DNA of 41,172 nucleotides from Modestobacter altitudinis (GTDB lineage: Bacteria; Actinomycetota; Actinomycetes; Mycobacteriales; Geodermatophilaceae), in the NCBI RefSeq assembly GCF_005930475.1, contig NZ_SJEW01000045.1:1-41172 (forward strand), read 5' to 3'. Shown in pieces: positions 13,252 through 25,383 of the stretch. Made by a program: the position numbers and the translations under genes. Below the pieces are notes generated by a model. That model saw only the letters and a list, made by a program, of their open reading frames with translations. It did no database searches and had not been told where the DNA came from. Every line of letters starts with the position of its first letter. Position 1 is the stretch's first letter.

Positions 13252-14316
13252 ATGACGCGTTCAGCTGCGATCGTGGGAGCGGGCGTGGGCGGCCTGTCGG
13301 CGGCGCTGGGATTGAGCCGTGCCGGTTGGCGGGTGTCCGTGCTGGAGAAGTGGCCACAGGTGGTCGGCACGGGCGCCGCACTGGGATTGTGGCCCGACGC
13401 CCAATCGGCGTTGGAGCGGCTGGGGTTGGGCGATGAGCTGCGGCGGACCGCTGTGCCGTACGAGCACGGCGAGATCCGTACCTCCGAGGGCCGACGACTG
13501 ACGCCCCTCCCCGTTTCCCGCATCCGTCGCACGACCGGGAGGTTCGTACTGCTGCTGTCTCGGACGTCGCTGATGAACATGCTTTTGGGGGCCGTGACTC
13601 GGCACGGCGTGACGGTCGAGACCGACGTCCGCATCACCGACCCGCAGCAGCTCGCGACCGAGCACGATGTGGTCGTCGGCGCCGATGGCCTGCGCAGCGC
13701 CGTCCGTCGGGCGTACTTCGGCGATGCCACAGCGCCACGGGATGCGCAGTTCACGGCCTGGCGTGGCTCCGTGGAGACCGAGACGAACTGGTACGGAGAA
13801 ACGTGGGGGAAGGGGCAGATCTTCGGCATCACGCCGATGGAGCCCGGGCGGACCAACTGGTACGCGGCCGTTCGGCACGAGAGTCCCCGAGACGACGCGG
13901 GTCTGGCGCTGCAGCACCTGCTGGCCTTGTACGAGGGCTGGCCGGCGCCCATCGAGGAAGTCCTGTCCTCGAGCAAGCCGGAGGCGCTGCTCCAGCACCA
14001 GGTCTTCGACCTGACGCCCCCGCTCCCGTCCTACGTCCGCGGCAACGCGGTCCTCGTCGGTGACGCGGCGCATGCCATGACGCCATCGCTCGGACAAGGG
14101 GCATGCCAGGCGGTCATCGATGGTGTTGCGCTGGCCGGCGCACTGGCCCAGGGGGATGACGTGGCAGCCGCGCTCCGCGCCTACGACGACGAGCGTCGTC
14201 GGCCGACGCAGCGTCTCGTGGTCGGCTCGGCCCGGGCCTCCCGCATCGGTCTGGCGGAGCAGTGGCTCGGCCTGCGATCAGCCGTGTTGCGCATGAGCGC
14301 TCCCGTCGCCCGCTGA
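13252..14316 (+). CDS. FAD-dependent monooxygenase
   Basis: This 354-residue flavoprotein of the group A hydroxylase type has GAGVGG at residues 9-14 (FAD), VVVGADGLRSAVRRAYF as the DG motif, and VLVGDAAHAMTPSLGQGA with Asp271 as the GD motif. It is shorter than most PHBH enzymes at the C-terminus but complete. ATG 13252 sits ten bases after a strong dyad; the leader is too short for a clear Shine-Dalgarno box. The convergent TetR gene follows 62 bp after its stop, a common repressor/tailoring- or detoxification-oxygenase pair. The substrate is unknown. Confidence 0.9.
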   Translation: MTRSAAIVGAGVGGLSAALGLSRAGWRVSVLEKWPQVVGTGAALGLWPDAQSALERLGLGDELRRTAVPYEHGEIRTSEGRRLTPLPVSRIRRTTGRFVLLLSRTSLMNMLLGAVTRHGVTVETDVRITDPQQLATEHDVVVGADGLRSAVRRAYFGDATAPRDAQFTAWRGSVETETNWYGETWGKGQIFGITPMEPGRTNWYAAVRHESPRDDAGLALQHLLALYEGWPAPIEEVLSSSKPEALLQHQVFDLTPPLPSYVRGNAVLVGDAAHAMTPSLGQGACQAVIDGVALAGALAQGDDVAAALRAYDDERRRPTQRLVVGSARASRIGLAEQWLGLRSAVLRMSAPVAR

Positions 14317-14378
14317 ACCCCGTCCATGGGCGCTGTGCCAGGGAGCGGTGGTGTGCTGCTGGTGTCCCGCTGCTCCGC

Positions 14379-14960
14379 TCAGCGGCTGTCCAGCGTCTCC
14401 GAGACCGAGCCGGCCAAGGCGGTCACGAGGGGCTCGAGTGTCGACCGGGCATCGAAGTCCTGCTGTGGCCGGATCAGCTGGTCGATGATGACCCCGTCGA
14501 TGCAGGACAGCAGCGTGCGTGCCGCCGCCTGGGGAGTCGGCGCTCCGATGCTGGTCAACCGGTCAGCCAGCAGCTCCCAGAACGGGACGGTTGCGGCCAA
14601 GAGGCTCGGGCGGAGCTCTGGCCGCCACGCGGCCTCGAGGAAGATCGCGTGGCGGGCGAGAGTCTGCGTCCGCCCTGGGCCCAGCAGGAAGGCGACCATG
14701 CTGGCCGCCTCGTCCACGAGTGATGCGACCGATGATCCGCTGTGCTGATCGGTTCCCAGGGAGGCGATGAGACGCAGTTCCCGGCGCGCGAGGTGCTCCA
14801 GGACGCCGGACAACAGGGCGTCGCGGGTGCGGAAGTAGTTCGACGCAGTACCGGGAGGGAGTCCCCCGTGCCGGTCGACCGCTCCGTGCGTCAGGGCTCG
14901 GATGCCGGCCTCACCCAGGAGGTCCAAGGCGGCGTCGAGCACCTGTGCCCGCCGGCTCAC
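14379..14960 (-). CDS. TetR-family transcriptional regulator
   Basis: This 193-residue protein has its helix-turn-helix at about residues 26-46 (GAVDRHGGLPPGTASNYFRT), in which PGTASNYF is the recognition helix. The C-terminal half resembles TetR_C domains of small-molecule-responsive repressors. The start is GTG at 14960. It is convergent with the FAD monooxygenase at 13252, whose promoter carries the CTACTA/TAGTAG dyad. No copy of that dyad is seen before this gene, so autoregulation is not indicated. Confidence 0.88.
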   Translation of the reverse strand: MSRRAQVLDAALDLLGEAGIRALTHGAVDRHGGLPPGTASNYFRTRDALLSGVLEHLARRELRLIASLGTDQHSGSSVASLVDEAASMVAFLLGPGRTQTLARHAIFLEAAWRPELRPSLLAATVPFWELLADRLTSIGAPTPQAAARTLLSCIDGVIIDQLIRPQQDFDARSTLEPLVTALAGSVSETLDSR

Positions 14961-15135: not shown

Positions 15136-16578
15136 TCAGGTGGACGTGTCCCAGGCCCGCCGCCGCTGTCCGGCGGGGTCCGACTCGACCCGCGACGTCG
15201 CGTCGAAGACGGCGGTGCAGCGGGCGGCGGGCTCGTACGGTACCCAGTCCACCAGCTCACCGGTCGCCGGTGTGCCGGCGCGCACCATGCCGAGGACGGC
15301 GTCGTGCAGCACGGCGGTCACCGCCTGGTCGGCGTCGGTCATGTCCGCGGCGGGCCGGGCCAGCAGCGGGCGCTCCACGAAGCGCGGCGGGTGGGCCCAC
15401 AGGCAGGCGTTGTCCGCGCCGTGCGTCGGGCCCAGACGGTCGTACGGCGGCAGACCGGGGGAGTGGTCCCAGCGGCTCACCCAGGCCCGGCCACCCGCCG
15501 ACACCTGGGCCTGCGCCAGCTCCCACACCGGCTGCACCCACATCTCGTCGGTGAGCAGGGCCTGGACCGGGTCCTCTCCCGGCCGGGCGGTTGCTGCGTA
15601 GACCGCGTGCAGCCGGTCAAAGCGAGCGCCGCCCACCCGCGCCCGGGCGACCGCGACGGCGTCGCCGCTCCCGTGCTGCAGGAACATCGTCATCTCGTCG
15701 CGGCAGGAGCCGAACCACAACGCGGTGTCCCGCAGCGCGCCGGTGGCGACCGCCACGGCGGGCTGGACCGCCAGCACGGTGCCGTCGAGCACCGGGCCCC
15801 ACACCACCCCGCCGAGCCGCTGCCGGCGCGACTCGCGAGCGACGGTCGCCGCCGCTGCCATGACCGCCTCGGCCGGCAGGGTCCGCAGAGCGGCCAGGTC
15901 GGTGCGCGGCACGCCGAGCTGGTGCAGCGTGCGCGCAGCGACGTCCACCGCCTCCGCGGGCTCCAGCACGGGGCCCCCGACCGAGAAGGCCACCGCGGCG
16001 CGCGCCCGTTGCCCGGCCGAGGTGGCGAGCAGGGCGCACACCAGGCTCGCCCCGGCCGACTGGCCGACCAGGGTGATCCGGTCCGGATCGCCACCGAAGG
16101 CGGCGATCTCCCGGCCGACCCAGTCCAGGGCGGCCAGCAGGTCTGTGAGGGCCGGGCTCGGGTCGGGCGCCTCGGCGGTGCCCAGCTGCAGGAACCCGAA
16201 GGGGCCGAGCCGGTAGGACACCGCCACGACGACCGCCGGCCCGGCGGCAGCGAGCACCGAGCCGTCGTAGTCGGCCGCCGCCCCGGTCTGGAACGCCCCG
16301 CCGTGCACCCAGAACAGCACGGGCAGCGGGCCAGGGACGTCGTCCGGCGCGTACACGTCGAGGGTCAGGCAGTCCTCGGTACCGGTGAGCGACCCGGCAG
16401 GTGTCCACTGCACGCCGACCGGGCCGGGAGCGGTGGCGTCGCGCGTGCCGGCCCAGCTCGGCGCCGGGCCGGCCGGCCCGAAGCGCTCGGCCGTGGCGTA
16501 GGCGATTCCGCGCCAGCTGCGGACGGTCCCGGCCACGCGGCCGACGACCGGTCCGGAGCCGGTGGGGACGAGGGACAC
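15136..16578 (-). CDS. Type B carboxylesterase (para-nitrobenzyl esterase family)
   Basis: This 480-residue carboxylesterase type B protein carries EDCLTLDVYAP near residue 70, the oxyanion hole HGGAF at 92-96, the nucleophile Ser174 in GQSAGAS, and the probable catalytic His386 in PTHGADNACLW. There is no signal peptide, so it acts in the cytoplasm. The start is GTG 16578 behind GGAGGT. It lies 65 bp downstream of the MFS transporter on the same strand, with no terminator visible, and so is probably co-transcribed with it. In this setting it may hydrolyse an imported quinate or shikimate ester; that is inference from context, as the family has very broad substrates. Confidence 0.92.
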   Translation of the reverse strand: MSLVPTGSGPVVGRVAGTVRSWRGIAYATAERFGPAGPAPSWAGTRDATAPGPVGVQWTPAGSLTGTEDCLTLDVYAPDDVPGPLPVLFWVHGGAFQTGAAADYDGSVLAAAGPAVVVAVSYRLGPFGFLQLGTAEAPDPSPALTDLLAALDWVGREIAAFGGDPDRITLVGQSAGASLVCALLATSAGQRARAAVAFSVGGPVLEPAEAVDVAARTLHQLGVPRTDLAALRTLPAEAVMAAAATVARESRRQRLGGVVWGPVLDGTVLAVQPAVAVATGALRDTALWFGSCRDEMTMFLQHGSGDAVAVARARVGGARFDRLHAVYAATARPGEDPVQALLTDEMWVQPVWELAQAQVSAGGRAWVSRWDHSPGLPPYDRLGPTHGADNACLWAHPPRFVERPLLARPAADMTDADQAVTAVLHDAVLGMVRAGTPATGELVDWVPYEPAARCTAVFDATSRVESDPAGQRRRAWDTST

Positions 16579-16643
16579 GGGCTACCTCCGGGGATGGACG
16601 CGACTGCGGGCCCCGGCACGGCCGGGGCCCGCAGGGTGAGCGG

Positions 16644-17990
16644 TCAGGCGTGGGTCAGCTGCTGATCCCGGTCGGCGGCCCGGGTGCCCAGGTCGGCGAG
16701 CGGCACGTGCGCGGTCTCCCGGGCGGTGAGCGCGCAGAGGCCGGCCACGGTCGCCGCGCCCGCGGTCAGCAGGGCGACCGGCAGCCAGCCGTCCACGCCG
16801 TCGCCGACGATGGCAGCGGCGATCGTCGGGGAGAAGCCGCCCAGAGCGAAGCCGATCTGCGTGCCGATGGCGGTTCCGGAGTAGCGCACCTTCGTGTCGA
16901 ACATCTCGCCGTACAGGGCCGGCCAGACTCCGTTGGCCGCGGAGTAGACGAGCCCGGCCAGCAGGATCCCGAACAGGAAGATGAGCCCGACCCGGCCGTG
17001 CTGCAGCGCCCAGAGGAACGGGAAGACCATCACCGCGGAGCCCAGCGCCCCGATGGCGAACACCGGGCGTCGGCCGATCCGGTCCGACAGCATCGCCCAG
17101 AGCGGGAGCGCGGCGAGCGCCAGCACGTTGGACAGGATGACCATCCACAGCAGCGTCGTCCGCTCCAGACCCACCACGTTGGTCCCGTGGGCGAGCGACC
17201 AGGTGCCGACGATCGTGCTCACGGTCGAGACCAGCGCGCAGAGGACCACCCGGATCACGGCCGGCGAGTGGTCGCGGAAGAGCACGGCGACGGGCAGCTT
17301 GGCGACCTCGTGGGCCTGCTCGGCCTTCTCGAACTCGGGGGTCTCCGGCAGCGAACGCCGCACCCAGTAGCCGACCGCGACGACGAGGGCGGACAGGAAG
17401 AAGGGGATCCGCCAGCCCCAGCTGAGCAGCTGGTCCTCGGGGAGCTGGGCGACGGCGAGGAACACCAGGTTGGCCAGGATGAGGCCGGCCTGGGTGCCCT
17501 CCAGGGTGAAGCTGGTGAAGAAGCCACGCCTGCCTTCCGGCGCGTGTTCCAGCGTCATCGAGTTGGCACCGCTCTGCTCACCGGCGGCTGAGAGCCCCTG
17601 GAGCACGCGGAGCAGCACCAACAGGATCGGCGCGGCGACGCCGATGGACTCATACGACGGGACCAGTCCGATGGCGAACGTGGAGACGCCCATCAGCAGC
17701 AGCGTCGCCACCAGCATCTTCTTGCGGCCCAGCTTGTCGCCGTAGTGGCCGATGATCACCGCGCCGACCGGGCGGGCGACGTAGGCGACGCCGAAGGTCG
17801 CCAGTGAGAGCAGAGTTGCCGTCGCCGGGTCGCTGTCGGGGAAGAACACCTCCGGGAAGACCAGCCCGGCGGCGGCCCCGTAGATGAAGAAGTCGTAGTA
17901 CTCCAGCGCGCTGCCGACGAAACTGGCGAGCGCCGCCTTGCGTGGCACGTGCACGGGCGCGGCGCCGCCCGGCTCGGGGGTCGAGCTCAT
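16644..17990 (-). CDS. MFS transporter, metabolite:H+ symporter (MHS) type
   Basis: This 448-residue, twelve-helix permease belongs to the MHS branch of the major facilitator superfamily. The N-terminus ASFVGSALEYYDFFIYGAAA, the ARPVGAVIIGHYGDKLGRKK loop between helices 2 and 3, and RVLQGLSAAGEQSGA are typical of that branch, which includes shikimate (ShiA), alpha-ketoglutarate and proline/betaine carriers. With quinate/shikimate enzymes next door, an import role for quinate, shikimate or an ester is the best inference. ATG 17990 follows AGGAG. The promoter region upstream (18150-18180) holds paired operator dyads shared with qsuD. Confidence 0.92.
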   Translation of the reverse strand: MSSTPEPGGAAPVHVPRKAALASFVGSALEYYDFFIYGAAAGLVFPEVFFPDSDPATATLLSLATFGVAYVARPVGAVIIGHYGDKLGRKKMLVATLLLMGVSTFAIGLVPSYESIGVAAPILLVLLRVLQGLSAAGEQSGANSMTLEHAPEGRRGFFTSFTLEGTQAGLILANLVFLAVAQLPEDQLLSWGWRIPFFLSALVVAVGYWVRRSLPETPEFEKAEQAHEVAKLPVAVLFRDHSPAVIRVVLCALVSTVSTIVGTWSLAHGTNVVGLERTTLLWMVILSNVLALAALPLWAMLSDRIGRRPVFAIGALGSAVMVFPFLWALQHGRVGLIFLFGILLAGLVYSAANGVWPALYGEMFDTKVRYSGTAIGTQIGFALGGFSPTIAAAIVGDGVDGWLPVALLTAGAATVAGLCALTARETAHVPLADLGTRAADRDQQLTHA

Positions 17991-18155
17991 GAGTTCTCCT
18001 GGGGGCCAGCGGCAGGGACCGGTGTCCCTGCGGGGTGGGCGACCGGGGGGCTCCCGGTGCGGTCAGCGGTGCGGCGTTGCAGAGCTGTGCGTGCGGTCCG
18101 GGGTCCCCGGCTCGGCACGCCCGCCCTTCTCGGGCTGGTGCTCCCAGCGGTATGT

Positions 18156-18180
18156 ACCAACTGGTTACGTACCAGATGGT
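18156..18180. promoter_or_regulatory. Operator pair upstream of the transporter-esterase operon
   Basis: Two dyads ACCA-N2-TGGT lie at 18156-18165 and 18171-18180, 15 bp apart. The first extends to the 13-mer ACCAACTGGTTAC, which recurs exactly before qsuD at 19923-19935. This is the probable site for the TetR protein encoded just upstream. Confidence 0.7.
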
Positions 18181-18277
18181 GAGGTGATGGCGGTCACGAT
18201 GTCAAGCGGGCACGGCCTGACCCGGATGCAACGGACGGAAAGGTGCAGGTGGACGGCGGTGCGCCGGCCGGGCGGGG

Positions 18278-18961
18278 TCAGCCGGCGGTCAGGTAGGCGA
18301 CCACGAGGTCGCCGAGCATGCTCCGCTGGTGGTCCCGCCGGGCCGGGTCGAGCAGGTCGCGGCCGAAGATGGCACCGAACGTGTGCCGGTTGGCGGTCCG
18401 GAAGACGCAGAACGCGCTGATCACCTGGTGCACGTCGAGGGCGTCCACGTCGTCCCGGAAGAGCCCGGCGGTCCAGCCCCGCTCCAGGATGGTGCCGAGC
18501 ACGTCGACCGCGGGGTTGGCCAGCCCGGTGAGGACCTCCGAGTGCGCGATGTGCTCGGCGTGGTGGATGTTCTCGATGCTGACCAGCCGGATGAACTCCG
18601 GGTGCGACTCGTGGTGGTCGAAGGTGAGCCCGGCGAGCTCGCGGATCGCTTCCACCGGGTCGAGGTGCTCGACGTCCAGTTGCTGTTCCAGGCTGCGGAT
18701 CCGGCTGTACGCCTGCTCCAGGACGGCGACGTAGAGCTGCTCCTTGCCGCCGAAGTAGTAGTAGATCATCCGCTTGGTGGTGCTGGTCTTGTCCGCGATC
18801 TCGTTGATCCGGGCACCGGCGTAGCCCCGGTCGGCGAACTCGCTGGTGGCCACGGCCAGGATGTCGGCCCGGGTGCGGTCGGCGTCCCGGGTCCGCTCAC
18901 CGGGACCGGCGGCGGCGGGGTCGCGGTGGACTGCCTCGGCGTCGGACGGCTGCGCGGTCAC
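18278..18961 (-). CDS. TetR-family regulator of the quinate/shikimate island
   Basis: This 227-residue TetR protein has its helix-turn-helix at about residues 48-75 (INEIADKTSTTKRMIYYYFG) and a long C-terminal ligand domain rich in His and Asp. The start is GTG 18961. It stands between the transporter-esterase genes (same strand, downstream) and the divergent TIM-barrel gene at 19053. In Corynebacterium glutamicum the analogous cluster is controlled by a LysR protein, QsuR; none is seen here, so this TetR is the natural candidate. Its link to the shared ACCAACTGGTTAC dyads is inferred. Confidence 0.9.
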   Translation of the reverse strand: MTAQPSDAEAVHRDPAAAGPGERTRDADRTRADILAVATSEFADRGYAGARINEIADKTSTTKRMIYYYFGGKEQLYVAVLEQAYSRIRSLEQQLDVEHLDPVEAIRELAGLTFDHHESHPEFIRLVSIENIHHAEHIAHSEVLTGLANPAVDVLGTILERGWTAGLFRDDVDALDVHQVISAFCVFRTANRHTFGAIFGRDLLDPARRDHQRSMLGDLVVAYLTAG

Positions 18962-19052
18962 GCACGGAGCCTAGGACGGCGGCCCGGGTGCTCGGTCAGT
19001 ACGCTCGCGGACCGCACCCGGGCGCCGCACGGCGCAGAGAGGCGGCACCGAC

Positions 19053-19850
19053 GTGAACCGCATGGTCGTCCACCAGTCCGTCGTCCACCCGCTCGATCCA
19101 CTGCAGTTGACCGAGCTGCTGCCCGGCACCGGCTGGGACTCCCTGGGCCTGCACGTCGGGGCCGCCGAGGAGGTCGAGCACTGGTGGTCGGGTGGGACGG
19201 GTGAGCAGAACCTCGCCCGCCTGGTGGACCTGCTGCTGCAGACCCGGGTGACGGTCCTCGACGTCGGCCGGGTGCGCCTGGACGGCCCGCTCCCGGCGGA
19301 CGACGTGCACGCCGCACACGGCCGGGTCCTCGACCTCGGTGCGCGCTTCGGAGCGCGCTTCGTGACCGCCCGCTTCGGCGCCCCGAGCACGCCGGCCGGC
19401 CGCGGCCTCGCCGAGCGGGTGGAGCTCTTCGGGCAACTGGCCGACCAGGCCCGGCCCTACCGGCTGCGCCCGCTGCTGGCCCCGGTGCCGGCCGACCGGC
19501 TCGATCTGCTCACCGACGCGCTCGCGGTGGTGGCCCCCTCCCGGGGCGGGCTGGTGCTGGACGTCGCGGCGACGTCGACCACGGCCGACCAGGTCGAGGA
19601 GGCTGTCGAGCTGGTGTGGGAGCACCTCGGCTACGTCCGGCTGAGCGCCCGGGGAGTGGAGGCGGCCGCAGGGGCCGCCGCCGGTCTGCTGGCCACCCTC
19701 CCGCCGCACGTCCCGGTCGCGCTCGGCGGCGACGACTCCCAAGGGCTGCTGGCCGAGGACCCGGCACCACGGCTGCGCCGGCTGCACGCGCTCGTCGACG
19801 AGATGCTGGAGCACCCCCGGGCACGGGCTCGGCGGCTGGGCGGCTCGTGA
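19053..19850 (+). CDS. TIM-barrel protein, sugar phosphate isomerase/epimerase-like
   Basis: This 265-residue protein has features of the AP-endonuclease-2/xylose-isomerase-like barrel: an N-terminal VHPLDPLQLTELLP and GWDSLGLHVG segment, LDVGRVRLDG, FGARFVTARFG and GGLVLDVAATSTTADQ, in the strand-helix order of that superfamily. The Glu/Asp/His metal set is not fully obvious, unlike in qsuB nearby. The start is GTG 19053. It is divergent from the TetR gene (91-bp gap) and 100 bp before qsuD. Its place in the island suggests an isomerase, dehydratase or epimerase acting on a related cyclitol; no specific function can be claimed. Confidence 0.75.
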   Translation: MNRMVVHQSVVHPLDPLQLTELLPGTGWDSLGLHVGAAEEVEHWWSGGTGEQNLARLVDLLLQTRVTVLDVGRVRLDGPLPADDVHAAHGRVLDLGARFGARFVTARFGAPSTPAGRGLAERVELFGQLADQARPYRLRPLLAPVPADRLDLLTDALAVVAPSRGGLVLDVAATSTTADQVEEAVELVWEHLGYVRLSARGVEAAAGAAAGLLATLPPHVPVALGGDDSQGLLAEDPAPRLRRLHALVDEMLEHPRARARRLGGS

Positions 19851-19922
19851 CCCGGCGTGTGGAGCGCGGCGCGTCGGGGCTGGCGCCGGCGCTCCGGGTG
19901 TGGTCCTCTGGAGACGCAACTC

Positions 19923-19940
19923 ACCAACTGGTTACCAGTC
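19923..19940. promoter_or_regulatory. Operator upstream of qsuD
   Basis: ACCAACTGGTTAC (19923-19935) is identical to the dyad before the transporter gene, and a further half-site ACCAGT overlaps its end. It lies directly before the GGAGG box of qsuD, so binding would block transcription into qsuD-qsuB. The shared sequence links the two transcription units. Confidence 0.68.
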
Positions 19941-19950
19941 GGAGGCCCTC

Positions 19951-20841
19951 GTGACCCCACCCTCCCGCAGTGTTCTCGTCGGCCTGGTCGGCAGCGGCAT
20001 CGGCCCGTCGCTGACCCCGCCGATGCACGAGCGGGAGGCTGACCAGCTCGGCATCCGCTACCTCTACCGGCGGTTCGACCTCGACGACCTGCAGCTGCCC
20101 GCGGAGGCGGTCGGGGACCTGCTGGCCGCCACCCGGCTCGCGGGGTTCGACGGGCTCAACGTCACCCACCCGTGCAAGCAGCTCGTGCTGCCGCACCTCG
20201 ACGAGCTCACCGCCGACGCCGCAGCGCTGGGAGCGGTCAACACGGTCGTCTTCCGGGACGGGCGGGCCATCGGGCACAACACCGACTGGTCCGGCTTCGC
20301 CCGGTCCTTCGACCGCGGGCTGCCCGAGGCCGCCCTCGACGACGTCGTCCTGCTCGGTGCCGGCGGGGCCGGCGCGGCCGTCGCCCATGCTCTGCTGACG
20401 CTCGGCGTCGGCCGGCTCACCGTGCTGGACGTCGACGGCGAACGCGCCCGGTCCCTGGTCGACGCGCTGTCGGCGCGCTTCGCCGCCGACCGGGCGGTCA
20501 GCGGCGACCTCGACAGCCTGGAGCCGTCGCTGGCAGCGGCGGACGGACTGGTGCACGCCACGCCCACCGGGATGGCCGCGCACCCTGGCCTGCCCGTGCC
20601 GGCCGCCCTGCTCCGGCCGCCACTGTGGGTGGCCGACGTCGTCTACCGACCGCTGGAGACCGAGCTCGTCCGCACCGCCCGGGCCGCGGGCTGCCGGGTG
20701 CTCGACGGCGGGGGCATGGCGGTCTACCAGGCGGTGGACGCGTTCCGGCTGTTCACCGACGTGGAGCCGGACGCCGACCGGATGCTCGCCCACTTCACCA
20801 CCCTGGTCGGCGAGCCCGTTCCCGACGCACGGGTCGGCTGA
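19951..20841 (+). CDS. qsuD: Quinate/shikimate dehydrogenase
   Basis: This is a 296-residue AroE-fold dehydrogenase of the catabolic QsuD type. The substrate domain has GSGIGPSLTPPMHEREA near the N-terminus, the catalytic pair Lys76 in NVTHPCKQ and Asp112 in GHNTD, and the nucleotide loop GAGGAG at 136-141. The second strand ends LDVDGERA with acidic Asp160 and Asp162 instead of the NRT/R motif of NADP-dependent AroE, which favours NAD and so the oxidative direction: quinate to 3-dehydroquinate, shikimate to 3-dehydroshikimate. GTG 19951 follows GGAGG. qsuB starts four bases after its stop. Confidence 0.93.
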   Translation: MTPPSRSVLVGLVGSGIGPSLTPPMHEREADQLGIRYLYRRFDLDDLQLPAEAVGDLLAATRLAGFDGLNVTHPCKQLVLPHLDELTADAAALGAVNTVVFRDGRAIGHNTDWSGFARSFDRGLPEAALDDVVLLGAGGAGAAVAHALLTLGVGRLTVLDVDGERARSLVDALSARFAADRAVSGDLDSLEPSLAAADGLVHATPTGMAAHPGLPVPAALLRPPLWVADVVYRPLETELVRTARAAGCRVLDGGGMAVYQAVDAFRLFTDVEPDADRMLAHFTTLVGEPVPDARVG

Positions 20842-20845
20842 CCGG

Positions 20846-22672
20846 ATGCCGTTCCGTCGGTCCGTCGCCACCGTCTGCCTGTCCGGCACGCTGGAGGACA
20901 AGCTCGCCGCTGCTGCCGGGGCCGGCTTCGACGGCATCGAGGTGTTCGAGCCCGACCTGATCGCCTCCCCGTGGCGCCCCCGCGAGCTGGCGGCCCGGTG
21001 CGCCGACCTCGGCCTGGGCATCGAGCTCTACCAGCCCTTCCGCGACCTCGACTCCACCGACCCAGCCACGTTCGCCCGCAACCTGCGCCGTGCCGACCGC
21101 AAGTTCGACGTCATGGCCGACCTCGGCGTGGACACCGTGCTGGTCTGCTCGTCGGTGTCCGACGACGCCGTCGCCGACGTCGACCAGGTCGCCGAGCAGC
21201 TGGCCATCGCGGCCTCCCGGGCCGGCGAGCGCGGGCTGCGGATCGCCTACGAGGCCCTGGCATGGGGCCGGCACGTCTCCACCTGGGAACGCTCCTGGGA
21301 GGCGGTCGCCCGGGCGGACCACCCGGCGCTGGGCTTGTGCCTCGACAGCTTCCACGTGCTGTCCCGCGGCGGGGACCCGGCCGGCTTCGCCGTCGTCCCC
21401 GCCGAGAAGCTCTTCTTCCTGCAGCTCGCCGACGCCCCGCACCTGCGGATGGACGTGCTGCAGTGGAGCCGCCACCACCGGCTCTTCCCGGGACAGGGAG
21501 CCTTCGACCTGCCCGAGTTCCTGCGCTGCGTGCTCGACGCCGGTTACGCCGGGCCGCTGTCGCTCGAGGTGTTCAACGACGTCTTCCGGCAGTCGGACCC
21601 GGCCCGCACGGCGGTGGACGCGCTCCGCTCGCTGATGTGGCTGGAGGAGCAGTTGCCCGGCCCGGCCGCCGTCCCTGCGGCCCCCGAGCTGACCGGCCAC
21701 TCGTTCGTCGAGCTCGGCGTCGACGGGGTCTCCGGACCGCAGGTCGCGCAGACACTGCACGAGCTCGGCTTCGCACACACCGGACAGCACCGTTCCAAGC
21801 CGGTCCAGCTGTGGGAGCAGGGGCGCGCCCGGGTGCTCCTCAATGCCTCCGTCGTCCGCCCGGCTGCCGCCGGCATCGCCGCGGTCACCGCGCTGGGGCT
21901 GGAGAGCGTGGACCCCGGCGCGTCGGCTGCCCGCGCGGAGGCACTGCACGCGCCGGTCCTGCCCCGGGACCGTGGCACGGCCGAGGCCCACCTGTCAGCG
22001 GTCGAGGCGCCCGACGGCACCCAGGTGTTCTTCACCCGGACCGGCCCCGGCGGGTGGCCCGCGGACTTCCTGCCCACCGACGAGCCGGACGGGGGCGCCG
22101 CGGGGCTGGCCAGCATCGACCACGTCGGCCTCACCCAGCCCTTCGACGCCTTCGACGAGGCCGGGCTGTTCTACCGTGCTGTGCTCGGGCTGGCGCCTCA
22201 GGCGGTCACCGAGTTCGCCGCCCCGTTCGGACTGGTGCGCAGCCGCGCGGTCACCGGGCCCGAGCGCGCGGTGCGGCTCGCGCTGAGCGTCGCCACGCTG
22301 CGCCGCGGCGGCTGGTCGCCGGCGGTGCCGGACCCCCAGTACGTCGCCTTCGCCACCGACGACATCGCGTCCACGGCCGCCCGGCTGCGGGCAGCCGACG
22401 CGCCGCTGCTCCCGGTACCGGCCAACTACGCCGACGACCTGGAAGCCCGGCTCGAGCTCGCGCCGGAACTCCTCGGTGCGATCCGCGAGCACGGCCTGAT
22501 GTACGACCAGGACGAGCGTGGCGGCTACCTCCACCTGGCCACCCTCGTGCTCGGTGACCGGGTGTTCTTCGAGGTGGTCCAGCGGCTGGGCGGGTACGAC
22601 GGCTACGGCAGCGCCGACGCACCCGTCCGGATGGCCGCGCACCGGCAGGCACGGACCTCTCGAGCCGACTGA
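20846..22672 (+). CDS. qsuB: 3-dehydroshikimate dehydratase with C-terminal HPPD-like domain
   Basis: This 608-residue two-domain protein matches QsuB in architecture. Residues 1-285 are an AP-endonuclease-like TIM barrel with the metal ligands in order: Glu136 (YEALAW), Asp167 (CLDSFH), Gln193 (FLQLADAP) and Glu241 (SLEVFND). It converts 3-dehydroshikimate to protocatechuate. Residues from about 300 form a two-module VOC domain resembling 4-hydroxyphenylpyruvate dioxygenase, with SIDHVGLTQP and GGYLHLATL / FFEVVQR providing a His-His-Glu site. The C-terminal domain's reaction is unsettled in the family. It follows qsuD by four bases and is certainly co-transcribed. Confidence 0.94.
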   Translation: MPFRRSVATVCLSGTLEDKLAAAAGAGFDGIEVFEPDLIASPWRPRELAARCADLGLGIELYQPFRDLDSTDPATFARNLRRADRKFDVMADLGVDTVLVCSSVSDDAVADVDQVAEQLAIAASRAGERGLRIAYEALAWGRHVSTWERSWEAVARADHPALGLCLDSFHVLSRGGDPAGFAVVPAEKLFFLQLADAPHLRMDVLQWSRHHRLFPGQGAFDLPEFLRCVLDAGYAGPLSLEVFNDVFRQSDPARTAVDALRSLMWLEEQLPGPAAVPAAPELTGHSFVELGVDGVSGPQVAQTLHELGFAHTGQHRSKPVQLWEQGRARVLLNASVVRPAAAGIAAVTALGLESVDPGASAARAEALHAPVLPRDRGTAEAHLSAVEAPDGTQVFFTRTGPGGWPADFLPTDEPDGGAAGLASIDHVGLTQPFDAFDEAGLFYRAVLGLAPQAVTEFAAPFGLVRSRAVTGPERAVRLALSVATLRRGGWSPAVPDPQYVAFATDDIASTAARLRAADAPLLPVPANYADDLEARLELAPELLGAIREHGLMYDQDERGGYLHLATLVLGDRVFFEVVQRLGGYDGYGSADAPVRMAAHRQARTSRAD

Positions 22673-22692
22673 CCCCGGCGGTGATGTGCGGA

Positions 22693-22710
22693 CCACGACG
22701 TTCCTCGTGG
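22693..22710 (+). repeat. Small hairpin CCACGA-N6-TCGTGG between qsuB and qsuC
   Basis: Six-base arms with a six-base loop lie in the 105-bp gap after qsuB. It could be an attenuating or mRNA-stabilising hairpin within the operon rather than a full terminator, because qsuC follows on the same strand. Confidence 0.4.
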
Positions 22711-22777
22711 ACCGGCTCACGGTGGGCACGTCAGGTCGTCACCTCTGCCAACGCACGTCTGTGAGGAGTGCTGCTCC

Positions 22778-23236
22778 ATGATCGACGCCGATCGGCTCCG
22801 GGTCCTCGTGCTCAACGGCCCGAACCTGAACATGTTGGGCACCCGTGAGCCAGCGATCTACGGGACGCACACCCTGCGTGATGTCGAGGAGCTGGTGGCG
22901 ACGAAGGGCCGTGAGCTGGGGCTCGACGTCACCTGTTTCCAGAGCAACTCCGAAGGTGAGCTCATCGACACGCTGCACGCAGCCCGGGGCACGCATGCCG
23001 GCCTCGTGCTGAACGCCGCTGGGCTGACGCACACGTCTGTGGTGCTGCGCGACGCGGTGGCGGCCTCGGAGCTGCCCTTCGTCGAAGTGCACATCACCAA
23101 CGTGCACAAGCGTGAGCCGTTCCGGCACACCTCCTTGCTCTCAGATGTCGCGCATGCCGTCATCGCCGGCGCGGGCATACGGGGATACGCCTTCGGGCTC
23201 GAGGTGCTCAGCGACCTCCTCGGGCAGCGGCGGTGA
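22778..23236 (+). CDS. aroQ: Type II 3-dehydroquinate dehydratase
   Basis: This 152-residue type II dehydroquinase (qsuC in catabolic clusters) interconverts 3-dehydroquinate and 3-dehydroshikimate. All family blocks are present: NGPNLNMLGTREPAIYG with lid Arg23 and catalytic Tyr28, FQSNSEGELID, LNAAGLTHTSVVLRDA, and VEVHITNVHKREPFRHTS with His105. Length is exactly normal. ATG 22778 has GAGGAG upstream. Placed after qsuD-qsuB it gives the middle step of quinate breakdown. It could also be the biosynthetic enzyme, but its position favours the catabolic role. Confidence 0.95.
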   Translation: MIDADRLRVLVLNGPNLNMLGTREPAIYGTHTLRDVEELVATKGRELGLDVTCFQSNSEGELIDTLHAARGTHAGLVLNAAGLTHTSVVLRDAVAASELPFVEVHITNVHKREPFRHTSLLSDVAHAVIAGAGIRGYAFGLEVLSDLLGQRR

Positions 23237-24003: not shown

Positions 24004-25383
24004 ATGGCCATCGACTTCACGCTCACGCCCGAGCAGAAGGTCCTCCAAGAGGCGGCTCGCGACTTTGCGGAGAACGTCCTCCGGCCGGTGGTGCGGGAAG
24101 CAGACGAAGAGCCCGATCCACTGCGCGCCTTCAACCTCACGAAGCCGGCTTACCGCGAGGCGGTGGAGCGCGGCATCGCGTTCTCGATGCTCCCCAAGCA
24201 GTACGGCGGCGGCGGCCTCTCGAACGTGGACTTCGTCATCGCCGCTGAGGAGATCTGCGCGGTCGATCCCGGTTTCGCCACCACCATCCTGGTGAACGGG
24301 CTGGGGCTCATGCCCGTCTGGTATTACGGCACGGAGGAACAGAGAGAACGCTTCATCTCCCGGGCCACGTCGGACACCTCCGGTGAGTTCATCGTCGGCT
24401 ATGCGGCCAGTGAGCCCCCCGGCTCGCCCGGCGGGACGGCCAACTTCGACGCCCCAGCGGTGAACGGCGCCGGCATGTCGGTGACCGCGACGCTGGACGG
24501 CGACGAGTACGTGGTGAACGGTCGCAAGTACTGGCCCTGCAACGTCGGCGGCTGGGACAACCAGGGCGCCGACCTGAACCTGGTCGTCGTCCGCACCGAC
24601 CGGGAGGCCGGGGGGACCCGAGCCCTGTCGGCTCTCATCGTGGAACGCGGAACGCCCGGCGTCACCTACTCGTCGATCAGCACGTCGGGTCAGCGACTGG
24701 CTCCCAACTGCGAGATCGTCTTCGACAACGCGCGGGTTCCCGCGGGCAACCTGATCGAGGGGACGCGCGGCAACGGCGACCTGCTCATCAACCGAAACTT
24801 CGCGTGGTCCGGCCCTGTCGCCGGGATCGCGGCCGTCGGGGTGGCGCGCGCGGCCTACGAGGAGGCGCTGGACTGGGCGAAGACCTACACCGCAGGCGGT
24901 CCGCAGCCCATCGTCGAGTACCAGTACCCCGGGTACGTCCTCGGTGACGTGGCGACGAAGATCGAGGCGGCGCGGTACTTCTGCTGGAAGGGCGCGCACT
25001 ACCTCGACGAGCACGACTATCACGGTGAGCTCATCGGGGCGATGAACAAGGTGCTGTGCACGGAGATGCTCTTCGACTGTGTCTACAAGTGCATGCAGGT
25101 CGTCGGGGTGAACTCTGTGGACCGCAAGCACATGTTCGAGCGTCACCTGCGCGAGGCGTCCATCCTGCCGCTCTACGACGCGGGGAACTTCGGCATGCAG
25201 CGCCGCCGCATCCACGGCGTCATGGCGCACTCCTCGTTCGATCCGCGAGCGCTCATGGACAACCGGGCAGTCGAGTTCAGCAAGGCCATGGAAGGGATTG
25301 ACACCATCCCCACCCCGCGCGCCGCGACGGCCGAGTCGTTCCGACCGGCCGGGGCCGACATGTCCGCCGCGCCGGCGAGCTGA
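24004..25383 (+). CDS. Acyl-CoA dehydrogenase family flavoprotein
   Basis: This 459-residue protein has the three acyl-CoA dehydrogenase domains: an N-terminal helical domain (FTLTPEQKVLQEAARDFAEN), a middle beta domain with YAASEPPGSPGG and KYWPCNVGGWDN in place of the usual EP.AGSD and K.WITN, and a C-terminal helical domain. The end has ILPLYDAGNFGMQRRRIHG where typical members have IYEGT. The position of the catalytic Glu therefore holds an Asp-containing variant, and a true dehydrogenase reaction is uncertain. It could be a divergent dehydrogenase or a group D monooxygenase-like enzyme. Ribosome site GGGGGAG precedes ATG 24004. A dead LLM gene is next door. Confidence 0.87.
   Translation: MAIDFTLTPEQKVLQEAARDFAENVLRPVVREADEEPDPLRAFNLTKPAYREAVERGIAFSMLPKQYGGGGLSNVDFVIAAEEICAVDPGFATTILVNGLGLMPVWYYGTEEQRERFISRATSDTSGEFIVGYAASEPPGSPGGTANFDAPAVNGAGMSVTATLDGDEYVVNGRKYWPCNVGGWDNQGADLNLVVVRTDREAGGTRALSALIVERGTPGVTYSSISTSGQRLAPNCEIVFDNARVPAGNLIEGTRGNGDLLINRNFAWSGPVAGIAAVGVARAAYEEALDWAKTYTAGGPQPIVEYQYPGYVLGDVATKIEAARYFCWKGAHYLDEHDYHGELIGAMNKVLCTEMLFDCVYKCMQVVGVNSVDRKHMFERHLREASILPLYDAGNFGMQRRRIHGVMAHSSFDPRALMDNRAVEFSKAMEGIDTIPTPRAATAESFRPAGADMSAAPAS

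What the first reader, a model, noticed from the sequence alone, without database searches (positions are those of the whole stretch)
15136..23236. Quinate/shikimate catabolic island with its own regulator, transporter and esterase
qsuD (NAD-type Asp after the second strand), qsuB (TIM barrel plus HPPD-like domain) and dehydroquinase lie together with an MHS transporter, a TetR regulator, a carboxylesterase and an unassigned TIM-barrel protein. The core matches the qsu cluster of Corynebacterium glutamicum. The TetR regulator, esterase and extra barrel are additions to that plan. The expected flow is quinate/shikimate to protocatechuate.
Basis: partly seen in the sequence, partly recalled or inferred. 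Interest (0 to 1): 0.7.

Follow-up and report, generated by a model that had tools for sequence, protein, structure and literature searches.

The report
Quinate island with metal-free TIM barrel
This is a normal soil-bacterium gene island for eating the plant acids quinate and shikimate, but its unassigned protein belongs to a conserved family that appears to have lost an enzyme's metal-holding residues and often stays beside the pathway's key enzyme.

Summary
The seven genes are real and at the stated places. The core (MHS transporter, TetR, NAD-type QsuD, two-domain QsuB, dehydroquinase) is an ordinary quinate/shikimate-to-protocatechuate island; protocatechuate dioxygenase genes lie elsewhere in the genome. 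The TetR is not a local addition: transporter, TetR, qsuD and qsuB occur together in 37 of 80 qsuB loci, and a 20-bp palindrome, my predicted operator, sits in 26 of 26 transporter-TetR gaps and 44 of 46 divergent gaps. The esterase is a local addition (6 of 80). The "unassigned TIM barrel" is the finding. It matches no Pfam or NCBIfam family, folds as a xylose-isomerase-like barrel, and none of 120 listed family members keeps four of the five active-site residues compared. Selection on it resembles that on QsuB. It occurs in 21 of 112 family genomes; 20 of these have QsuB, mostly next door; the exception carries a split copy. Metal-keeping relatives in Rubrobacteraceae sit beside quinate-type genes in genomes without QsuB and share 8 of 10 QsuB active-site residues. 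A more distant relative is QsuB's third domain in other actinomycetes. Best guess: a former dehydratase-like enzyme, now a metal-free partner of QsuB. Partnership is inferred, not shown.

The parts
15136..16578 (-). Type-B carboxylesterase (COesterase), Ser174 in GQSAG, no evident export signal; behind the transporter
   Evidence: PF00135 E 3.4e-70; best solved relative p-nitrobenzyl esterase 1c7j E 2.3e-63; position of Ser; absence of signal peptide judged by eye
16644..17990 (-). MHS-type MFS transporter, candidate quinate/shikimate importer
   Evidence: TIGR00883 391.8 bits (cutoff 443.45), NF007414 shikimate transporter 337.5 bits (cutoff 538): both below cutoff
18151..18170 (.). Predicted TetR operator, site 1 upstream of transporter/esterase genes, 18.9 bits
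   Evidence: PWM scan
18166..18185 (.). Predicted TetR operator, site 2 upstream of transporter/esterase genes, 19.4 bits
   Evidence: PWM scan
18278..18961 (-). TetR-family regulator (TetR_C_29), predicted repressor of the island
   Evidence: Pfam; ortholog within 8 kb of qsuB in 56 of 80 loci
19053..19850 (+). Xylose-isomerase-like TIM barrel without the metal site (265 aa), the unassigned gene
19918..19937 (.). Predicted TetR operator between TIM gene and qsuD, 13 bp upstream of the likely qsuD start, 18.0 bits
   Evidence: PWM scan, start codon and SD
19951..20841 (+). qsuD: NAD-type quinate/shikimate dehydrogenase (likely start 19951; ORF opens at 19900)
   Evidence: NF009201 440.8 bits, cutoff 235; NF010631 quinate/shikimate dehydrogenase (NAD+) 291.9 bits, below its cutoff 515; 3jyo E 1.8e-79; residues
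20846..22672 (+). qsuB: two-domain 3-dehydroshikimate dehydratase (XI-like barrel + HPPD-like domain)
   Evidence: NF042435 QuiC E 1.9e-167, 558.5 bits, below its cutoff 1200; 5hmq E 1.5e-146; active-site residues
22778..23236 (+). Type II 3-dehydroquinate dehydratase (qsuC role); a second copy lies elsewhere in the genome
   Evidence: PF01220 E 5.4e-56; second copy G000:C81

Best explanation
Layer 1 (near certain): a TetR-controlled island for quinate/shikimate use. The MHS protein imports the acids, QsuD oxidises them with NAD, the type II dehydroquinase makes 3-dehydroshikimate, QsuB makes protocatechuate, and the pca genes elsewhere finish the job. The TetR protein represses from the 20-bp palindrome in front of the transporter/esterase genes and of qsuD-qsuB. 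Layer 2 (inferred): the 19053-19850 barrel descends from a metal-dependent dehydratase-like enzyme of the same fold. Its lineage lost the metal site and was kept as a metal-free partner of QsuB, binding an acid intermediate or QsuB itself to tune activity, assembly or product inhibition. Shown by computation: gene identities, the conserved palindrome, loss of the residues, purifying selection, co-occurrence with QsuB, fusion of a related domain to QsuB elsewhere. Not shown: binding to QsuB or to any metabolite, repression by the TetR, activity of any protein.
For: Family matches and residues. Protocatechuate dioxygenase genes in the own genome, with pobA-, pcaB- and pcaD-like neighbours named by eye. 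Palindrome learnt from 56 TetR-upstream regions (45 hold a site of 14 bits or more), then found in 26 of 26 loci in the transporter-TetR gap, not used for learning, and in 44 of 46 divergent gaps; 145 hits of 13 bits or more in 1.66 Mb, 143 of them within 500 bp of an end of the TetR, transporter, qsuD or qsuB match, against 5.2 hits per set for shuffled DNA. Barrel: of 120 listed members (of 173 found; window included) none keeps the Glu, His, Gln/His and second Glu, all keep Asp; one truncated member has a gap at two of the sites. Of 120 listed Rubrobacter-type relatives (of 666) and 120 listed QsuB third domains (of 377), all keep all five. Barrel family monophyletic 100/100; with the Rubrobacter-type form 97/93. 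dN/dS against two same-genus relatives 0.137 and 0.123, QsuB 0.172 and 0.179. Barrel in 21 of 112 family genomes, 20 of them with QsuB; QsuB in 51 of 112, counted by hand (Fisher p 1.7e-7, not corrected for ancestry). Distance between the matched spans is 35-162 bp in 15 of these 20, 1.0 kb in 4, 6.4 kb in 1. Adjacency holds in several gene orders. Third-domain fusion: 112 of 120 listed proteins are 850 aa or longer.
Against: In Pseudonocardia the barrel is next to qsuB in one genome (18 bp), 11-27 kb away in three, 1.3 Mb in one and on another contig in one. 31 of 51 QsuB-bearing family genomes lack the barrel, so QsuB does not need it. Third-domain fusions keep the metal residues and form a separate clade from the window's family, so the fusion argues only by analogy. 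In the window, L003 and L025 the barrel gene lies next to TetR; in the window it lies between TetR and the palindrome, and no site of 8 bits or more lies in its own promoter gap. The window's three sites score 18-19 bits, lower than many relatives' (up to 35.4). Against L125 the barrel's dN/dS (0.244) is not below QsuB's (0.240). Strongly conserved polar residues (H7, Q8, S9, D70, R107, D170, R196) would also suit a new metal-free enzyme.
Confidence: 0.5

Rival explanations
1. The barrel is a live, metal-independent enzyme with new chemistry on a pathway acid or lactone (for example an isomerase or hydrolase), using conserved His7/Gln8/Ser9, Asp70, Arg107, Asp170 and Arg196 instead of a metal.
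For: Twenty polar or aromatic residues conserved at 95% or more in 120 listed members, several at strand ends; Gln/His replaced by Arg in 119 of 120 and Glu by Gly in 119 of 120, the last having a gap; purifying selection.
Against: The loop with the active-site Ser is deleted. Barrel-mouth positions, drawn roughly from strand ends, are not more conserved on average than the rest (0.654 vs 0.693). No pathway step lacks an enzyme in the window.
Confidence: 0.3
2. The barrel is a hitchhiking relic with no role in quinate use.
For: Not found in 91 of 112 family genomes; scattered placement in Pseudonocardia; split copy in G045 and copy in pieces in G519.
Against: dN/dS close to QsuB's, lower in three of four comparisons; adjacency kept through several gene orders; the G045 split copy is in the one family carrier without full QsuB.
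Confidence: 0.12
3. The island's true food is a quinate ester such as chlorogenate: the transporter takes up the ester and the esterase frees quinate inside the cell.
For: Esterase lies directly behind the transporter in 6 of 80 loci, in the window behind the same predicted operators; it is a type-B esterase.
Against: Only 6 of 80 loci; nearest solved relatives are general esterases; no specificity can be read from sequence here. Genes for the caffeate half were not looked for.
Confidence: 0.25
4. The island makes, rather than breaks down, a shikimate-derived compound.
For: Same enzyme families occur in biosynthesis (AsbF-type dehydratase serves petrobactin; PMC9324987 passages).
Against: Two-domain dehydratases are catabolic in that paper; NAD-type QsuD, importer-type transporter, and protocatechuate dioxygenase genes in the genome.
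Confidence: 0.03

Closest known systems
qsu cluster of Corynebacterium glutamicum (qsuA-D, QsuR)
   Same: Same enzyme kinds: QsuD-type dehydrogenase, two-domain QsuB, type II dehydroquinase, an importer (the C. glutamicum gene set is partly recalled).
   Different: TetR instead of LysR QsuR; extra barrel and esterase. C. glutamicum DNA was not compared here.
Two-domain bacterial dehydroshikimate dehydratases (QuiC1/QsuB, 5hmq)
   Same: Window QsuB has both domains and all ten published active-site residues.
   Different: In the HPPD-like domain the second metal His is Tyr499, as in 27 of 81 sequences.
Xylose-isomerase-like TIM barrels (IolI, UlaE, AsbF)
   Different: Four of five active-site residues kept by none of 120 listed members; no Pfam or NCBIfam match.
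Rubrobacteraceae barrel next to shikimate-dehydrogenase-like, dehydroquinase or transporter genes
   Same: Closest metal-keeping relative found (26-32% identity; 97/93 with the window family).

Membership tests
qsu-type quinate/shikimate catabolic cluster | NAD-type quinate/shikimate dehydrogenase | tested here: met
   NF009201 440.8 bits over cutoff 235; NF010631 (NAD+ equivalog) 291.9 under cutoff 515; Asp160 aligned with the Asp of 3jyo
qsu-type quinate/shikimate catabolic cluster | Two-domain QsuB with dehydratase active site | tested here: met
   Ten of ten residues present in the window protein; below the QuiC equivalog cutoff (558.5 of 1200 bits)
qsu-type quinate/shikimate catabolic cluster | Type II dehydroquinase in the cluster | tested here: met
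   PF01220 and TIGR01088 above cutoff
qsu-type quinate/shikimate catabolic cluster | LysR-type regulator QsuR as in C. glutamicum | tested here: not met
   Adjacent regulator is TetR; QsuR is LysR (PMC11258901 passages)
qsu-type quinate/shikimate catabolic cluster | Protocatechuate ring-cleavage genes in the genome | tested here: met
   Two adjacent PF00775 genes at G000:C95, pca-like neighbours by eye
qsu-type quinate/shikimate catabolic cluster | Induction by and growth on quinate or shikimate | not testable with these tools
   Needs culture work
Dehydroshikimate dehydratase (for the 19053-19850 barrel) | Active-site Glu, Asp, His, Gln/His and Glu | tested here: not met
   Only Asp kept in the window protein; none of 120 listed members keeps the other four
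Xylose-isomerase-like TIM barrel fold (for the 19053-19850 barrel) | Eight-strand barrel matching IolI/AsbF | tested here: met
Pfam AP_endonuc_2 (for the 19053-19850 barrel) | Match to the family model | tested here: not met
   0 families at E 0.01; a Rubrobacteraceae relative matches
TetR-family repressor | TetR_N DNA-binding domain | tested here: met
   PF00440 48.9 bits, cutoff 24
TetR-family repressor | Binds a palindromic operator | tested here: inconclusive
   Conserved palindrome near its gene; binding cannot be tested here
Chlorogenate-type esterase | Cleavage of quinate esters | not testable with these tools
   Only type-B carboxylesterase membership shown

The most novel reading that the evidence does not exclude
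One barrel family has three states around quinate breakdown: a metal-keeping stand-alone form that replaces QsuB in Rubrobacteraceae (a new single-domain dehydroshikimate dehydratase), a related metal-keeping third domain fused to QsuB in many actinomycetes (a three-domain dehydratase class), and in Geodermatophilaceae and Pseudonocardia a form that lost the metal site and became a dedicated pseudoenzyme partner of QsuB.
Probability: 0.3. Interest if true: 0.7.

Novelty: new variant of a known kind. Interest (0 to 1): 0.5.

Why it matters
Most of the island is textbook. The barrel is a clean natural case of an enzyme fold losing its active-site residues while staying under selection beside a living enzyme of the same fold. 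That makes a pseudoenzyme hypothesis directly testable with two purified proteins. The same comparison points to a possible new class of dehydroshikimate dehydratase in Rubrobacteraceae and to a three-domain QsuB. QsuB has been used to make protocatechuate and to lower plant lignin (titles and abstract starts in the listing), so a natural partner that changes its product inhibition would be of practical use. The palindrome offers a candidate operator for a quinate-responsive TetR switch.

Tried and rejected
TetR as a local addition: rejected by synteny and palindrome. Barrel as a second dehydratase: rejected, active-site residues absent. Barrel as a decaying gene: not supported, except broken copies in G045 and G519. 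Seven-gene set as a conserved unit: not supported; seen only in the window and two same-genus genomes, among the 80 qsuB loci and the barrel-bearing family genomes. Operator near the own-genome pca cluster: none at 6 bits or more in L154-L157. Core-pattern search of the own genome: 14 matches, 2 in the window (the third window site starts with another base and is missed); a backwards-pattern control gave 10, so the short pattern alone is not specific. Operator in the Pseudonocardia loci L173-L180: none at 12 bits; in Rubrobacteraceae L143, L144, L145, L147 and L148 one 14.3-bit hit, in L145. L126, where the barrel also follows TetR, was not scanned.

Limits. The phylum-wide barrel search scored only 6 candidates per genome and the family search 23, so 12 of 396 and 21 of 112 are lower bounds. 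Two incomplete family genomes (G082, G097) show short QsuB fragments of about 70% identity and were not counted among the 51. (all-against-all ORFs) was mostly noise and cut; I took from it only impressions by eye of neighbouring aromatic-catabolism genes in Pseudonocardia. Which of the compared residues bind the metal is recalled; the paper passages seen list them as active-site residues.

Papers. Searches for a three-domain dehydratase, Geodermatophilaceae and quinate, Rubrobacter and quinate, 'Rosetta stone', TetR and quinate in actinobacteria, pseudoenzyme barrels, and for qsuB, dehydratase variants and QuiC1 showed nothing on this barrel in their listings; passages were read of three papers only. 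The 2017 structural paper on dehydratase variants, recalled by DOI, is not held, so a prior description there is not excluded.
Full report
What is there. The window lies in a genome of the Geodermatophilaceae (named relatives; genome 5.18 Mb, 99.5% complete). The seven genes are confirmed. Esterase, transporter and TetR read leftward; barrel, qsuD, qsuB and dehydroquinase read rightward. qsuD most likely starts at GTG 19951, behind a GGAGG, not at the ORF start 19900.

Core pathway. QsuD aligns over nearly its whole length with a solved quinate/shikimate dehydrogenase (3jyo, E 1.8e-79) and has the Asp after the second strand. QsuB aligns over both domains with QuiC1 (5hmq, E 1.5e-146). A study of C. 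glutamicum QsuB lists ten active-site residues (PMC7442255, passages); all ten are in the window protein, and in 81 sequences (window and 80 loci) the two Glu and the Asp are invariant. The genome has a second dehydroquinase, a second shikimate dehydrogenase and protocatechuate dioxygenase genes elsewhere, with pobA-, pcaB- and pcaD-like neighbours named by eye. So flow from quinate/shikimate to protocatechuate and on into ring cleavage is complete on paper; later pca steps were not checked.

Regulator. Among 80 qsuB loci (the best of 127 confirmed), within 8 kb of qsuB, 56 have the TetR, 54 qsuD, 44 the transporter, 18 dehydroquinase, 14 the barrel and 5 the esterase; 37 have transporter, TetR and qsuD together; 12 have none. 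A sixth esterase lies beyond 8 kb in L018. From 56 regions upstream of the TetR (55 loci and the window) I learnt a 20-bp palindrome, aAtgtACcAgcTgGTacaTt; 45 of the 56 hold a site of 14 bits or more, and 11, the window's among them, do not. It was then found in 26 of 26 loci in the transporter-TetR gap, which was not used for learning, and in 44 of 46 divergent gaps. The two misses, L003 and L025, are loci where the barrel gene sits next to TetR. Of 145 hits of 13 bits or more in 1.66 Mb, 100 lie in those gaps and 143 within 500 bp of an end of a TetR, transporter, qsuD or qsuB match; two lie elsewhere. Shuffled loci gave 5.2 hits per set, and one first-order Markov pass gave 2. In the window the sites are 18151-18170 and 18166-18185, before the transporter, and 19918-19937, before qsuD. 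The TetR is thus a usual regulator of this pathway in the sampled actinomycetes, whereas C. glutamicum uses LysR-type QsuR (PMC11258901, passages). Binding is not shown.

The unassigned barrel. No Pfam or NCBIfam family matches. The model is confident (pLDDT 89.4) and is a xylose-isomerase-like barrel. Search found 173 relatives, 120 listed, the window's own included. In the 120, Asp170 is kept by all; the Glu, His, Gln/His and second Glu are kept by none; Arg196 and Gly225 stand in two of the places in 119 of 120, the last being a truncated protein with gaps there. The loop with the active-site Ser is deleted. Selection is purifying: dN/dS for the barrel is 0.137, 0.123, 0.169 and 0.244 against L123, L124, L126 and L125, and for QsuB 0.172, 0.179, 0.204 and 0.240.

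Where it occurs. It is in 21 of 112 family genomes. QsuB, counted by hand at E 6.7e-194 or better, is in 51 of 112, two of them partial or split. Of the 21 barrel genomes 20 have QsuB. The exception, G045, has only a weak match and a barrel split between frames. Fisher p is 1.7e-7 without correction for ancestry. Distances between the matched spans in the 20 genomes are 35-162 bp in 15, about 1.0 kb in 4 and 6.4 kb in 1. Gene order differs: TetR-barrel-qsuD-qsuB, TetR-barrel-qsuB, qsuB-barrel in tandem, and qsuB-barrel convergent.

In Pseudonocardia the search gave 12 of 62 genomes at E 0.001, seven of them at E 1e-90 or better. Of nine of the 12 tested for QsuB, six have it in full, two in part or fragments and one, a 3.4 Mb assembly, shows only a weak generic match. 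Two of the nine barrels are themselves partial or in pieces (G533, G519). Distance to QsuB varies widely: 18 bp in one, 11-27 kb in three, 1.3 Mb in one, another contig in one. This weakens the case for a strict operon partner.

A second metal-keeping relative is fused behind QsuB: a search with the third domain of a 916-aa protein from G454 found 377 and listed 120 proteins, 112 of them 850 aa or longer, with names such as Microbacterium, Agromyces, Actinoplanes, Kribbella and Nonomuraea. Of the 80 loci, 10 have such a three-domain QsuB and none of these has the metal-less barrel; 14 have a two-domain QsuB plus the metal-less barrel; 56 have a two-domain QsuB and no barrel. The third domain has His for Gln191 and Ala for Ser206 (40 of 120 sampled). 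In the tree of 52 chosen rows the metal-less family is one clade (100/100) joined with the Rubrobacter-type form (97/93); the third domains are a separate clade, and long-branch warnings apply to the deepest joins. The Rubrobacter-type rows were not recovered as one clade, so the metal-less family may lie inside them.

Reading. Layer 1, a TetR-controlled quinate/shikimate island, is near certain (I would put 0.93). Layer 2, that the barrel is a metal-free partner of QsuB, is the best of several options (about 0.45). Support by analogy: the HPPD-like domain of QsuB is already proposed to serve assembly, as no activity on protocatechuate was found (PMC7442255, passages), and in this lineage its second metal His is often Tyr (27 of 81). 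The main rival is a metal-independent enzyme (0.3). The esterase may free quinate from esters; that is a guess from position.

Novelty. The island is known in kind. A 2022 paper divides dehydroshikimate dehydratases into four classes, with no three-domain class in the passages seen (PMC9324987). My paper searches showed no description of the barrel in their listings, but the library lacks most subscription papers.

Noticed in passing
window 20846-22672, residue 499 of QsuB: The second metal His of the HPPD-like domain is Tyr in the window and in 27 of 81 sequences in all (His 50, Cys 2, Leu 1, gap 1), mostly Geodermatophilaceae.
   Followed up: partly
L153:6305-9052 and P0241-P0360: Three-domain QsuB (dehydratase barrel, HPPD-like, second metal-keeping barrel) occurs in Microbacteriaceae, Micromonosporaceae and others.
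   Followed up: partly
L143-L149, L151 (Rubrobacteraceae): Metal-keeping barrel beside quinate-type genes in genomes without QsuB; candidate single-domain dehydroshikimate dehydratase.
   Followed up: partly
G045:C5:222356-223115 (L142): The only family genome with the barrel but no full QsuB has the barrel split between two frames.
   Followed up: no
G553:C1:7368710-7369855: A second, stop-bearing partial QsuB in a Pseudonocardia genome that also has a full copy.
   Followed up: no
window 13252-14960: FAD monooxygenase and a second TetR (TetR_C_31) lie convergently just left of the island; not part of the conserved set.
   Followed up: no
window 24004-25383: Acyl-CoA-dehydrogenase-like gene right of the island, not conserved with it.
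   Followed up: no
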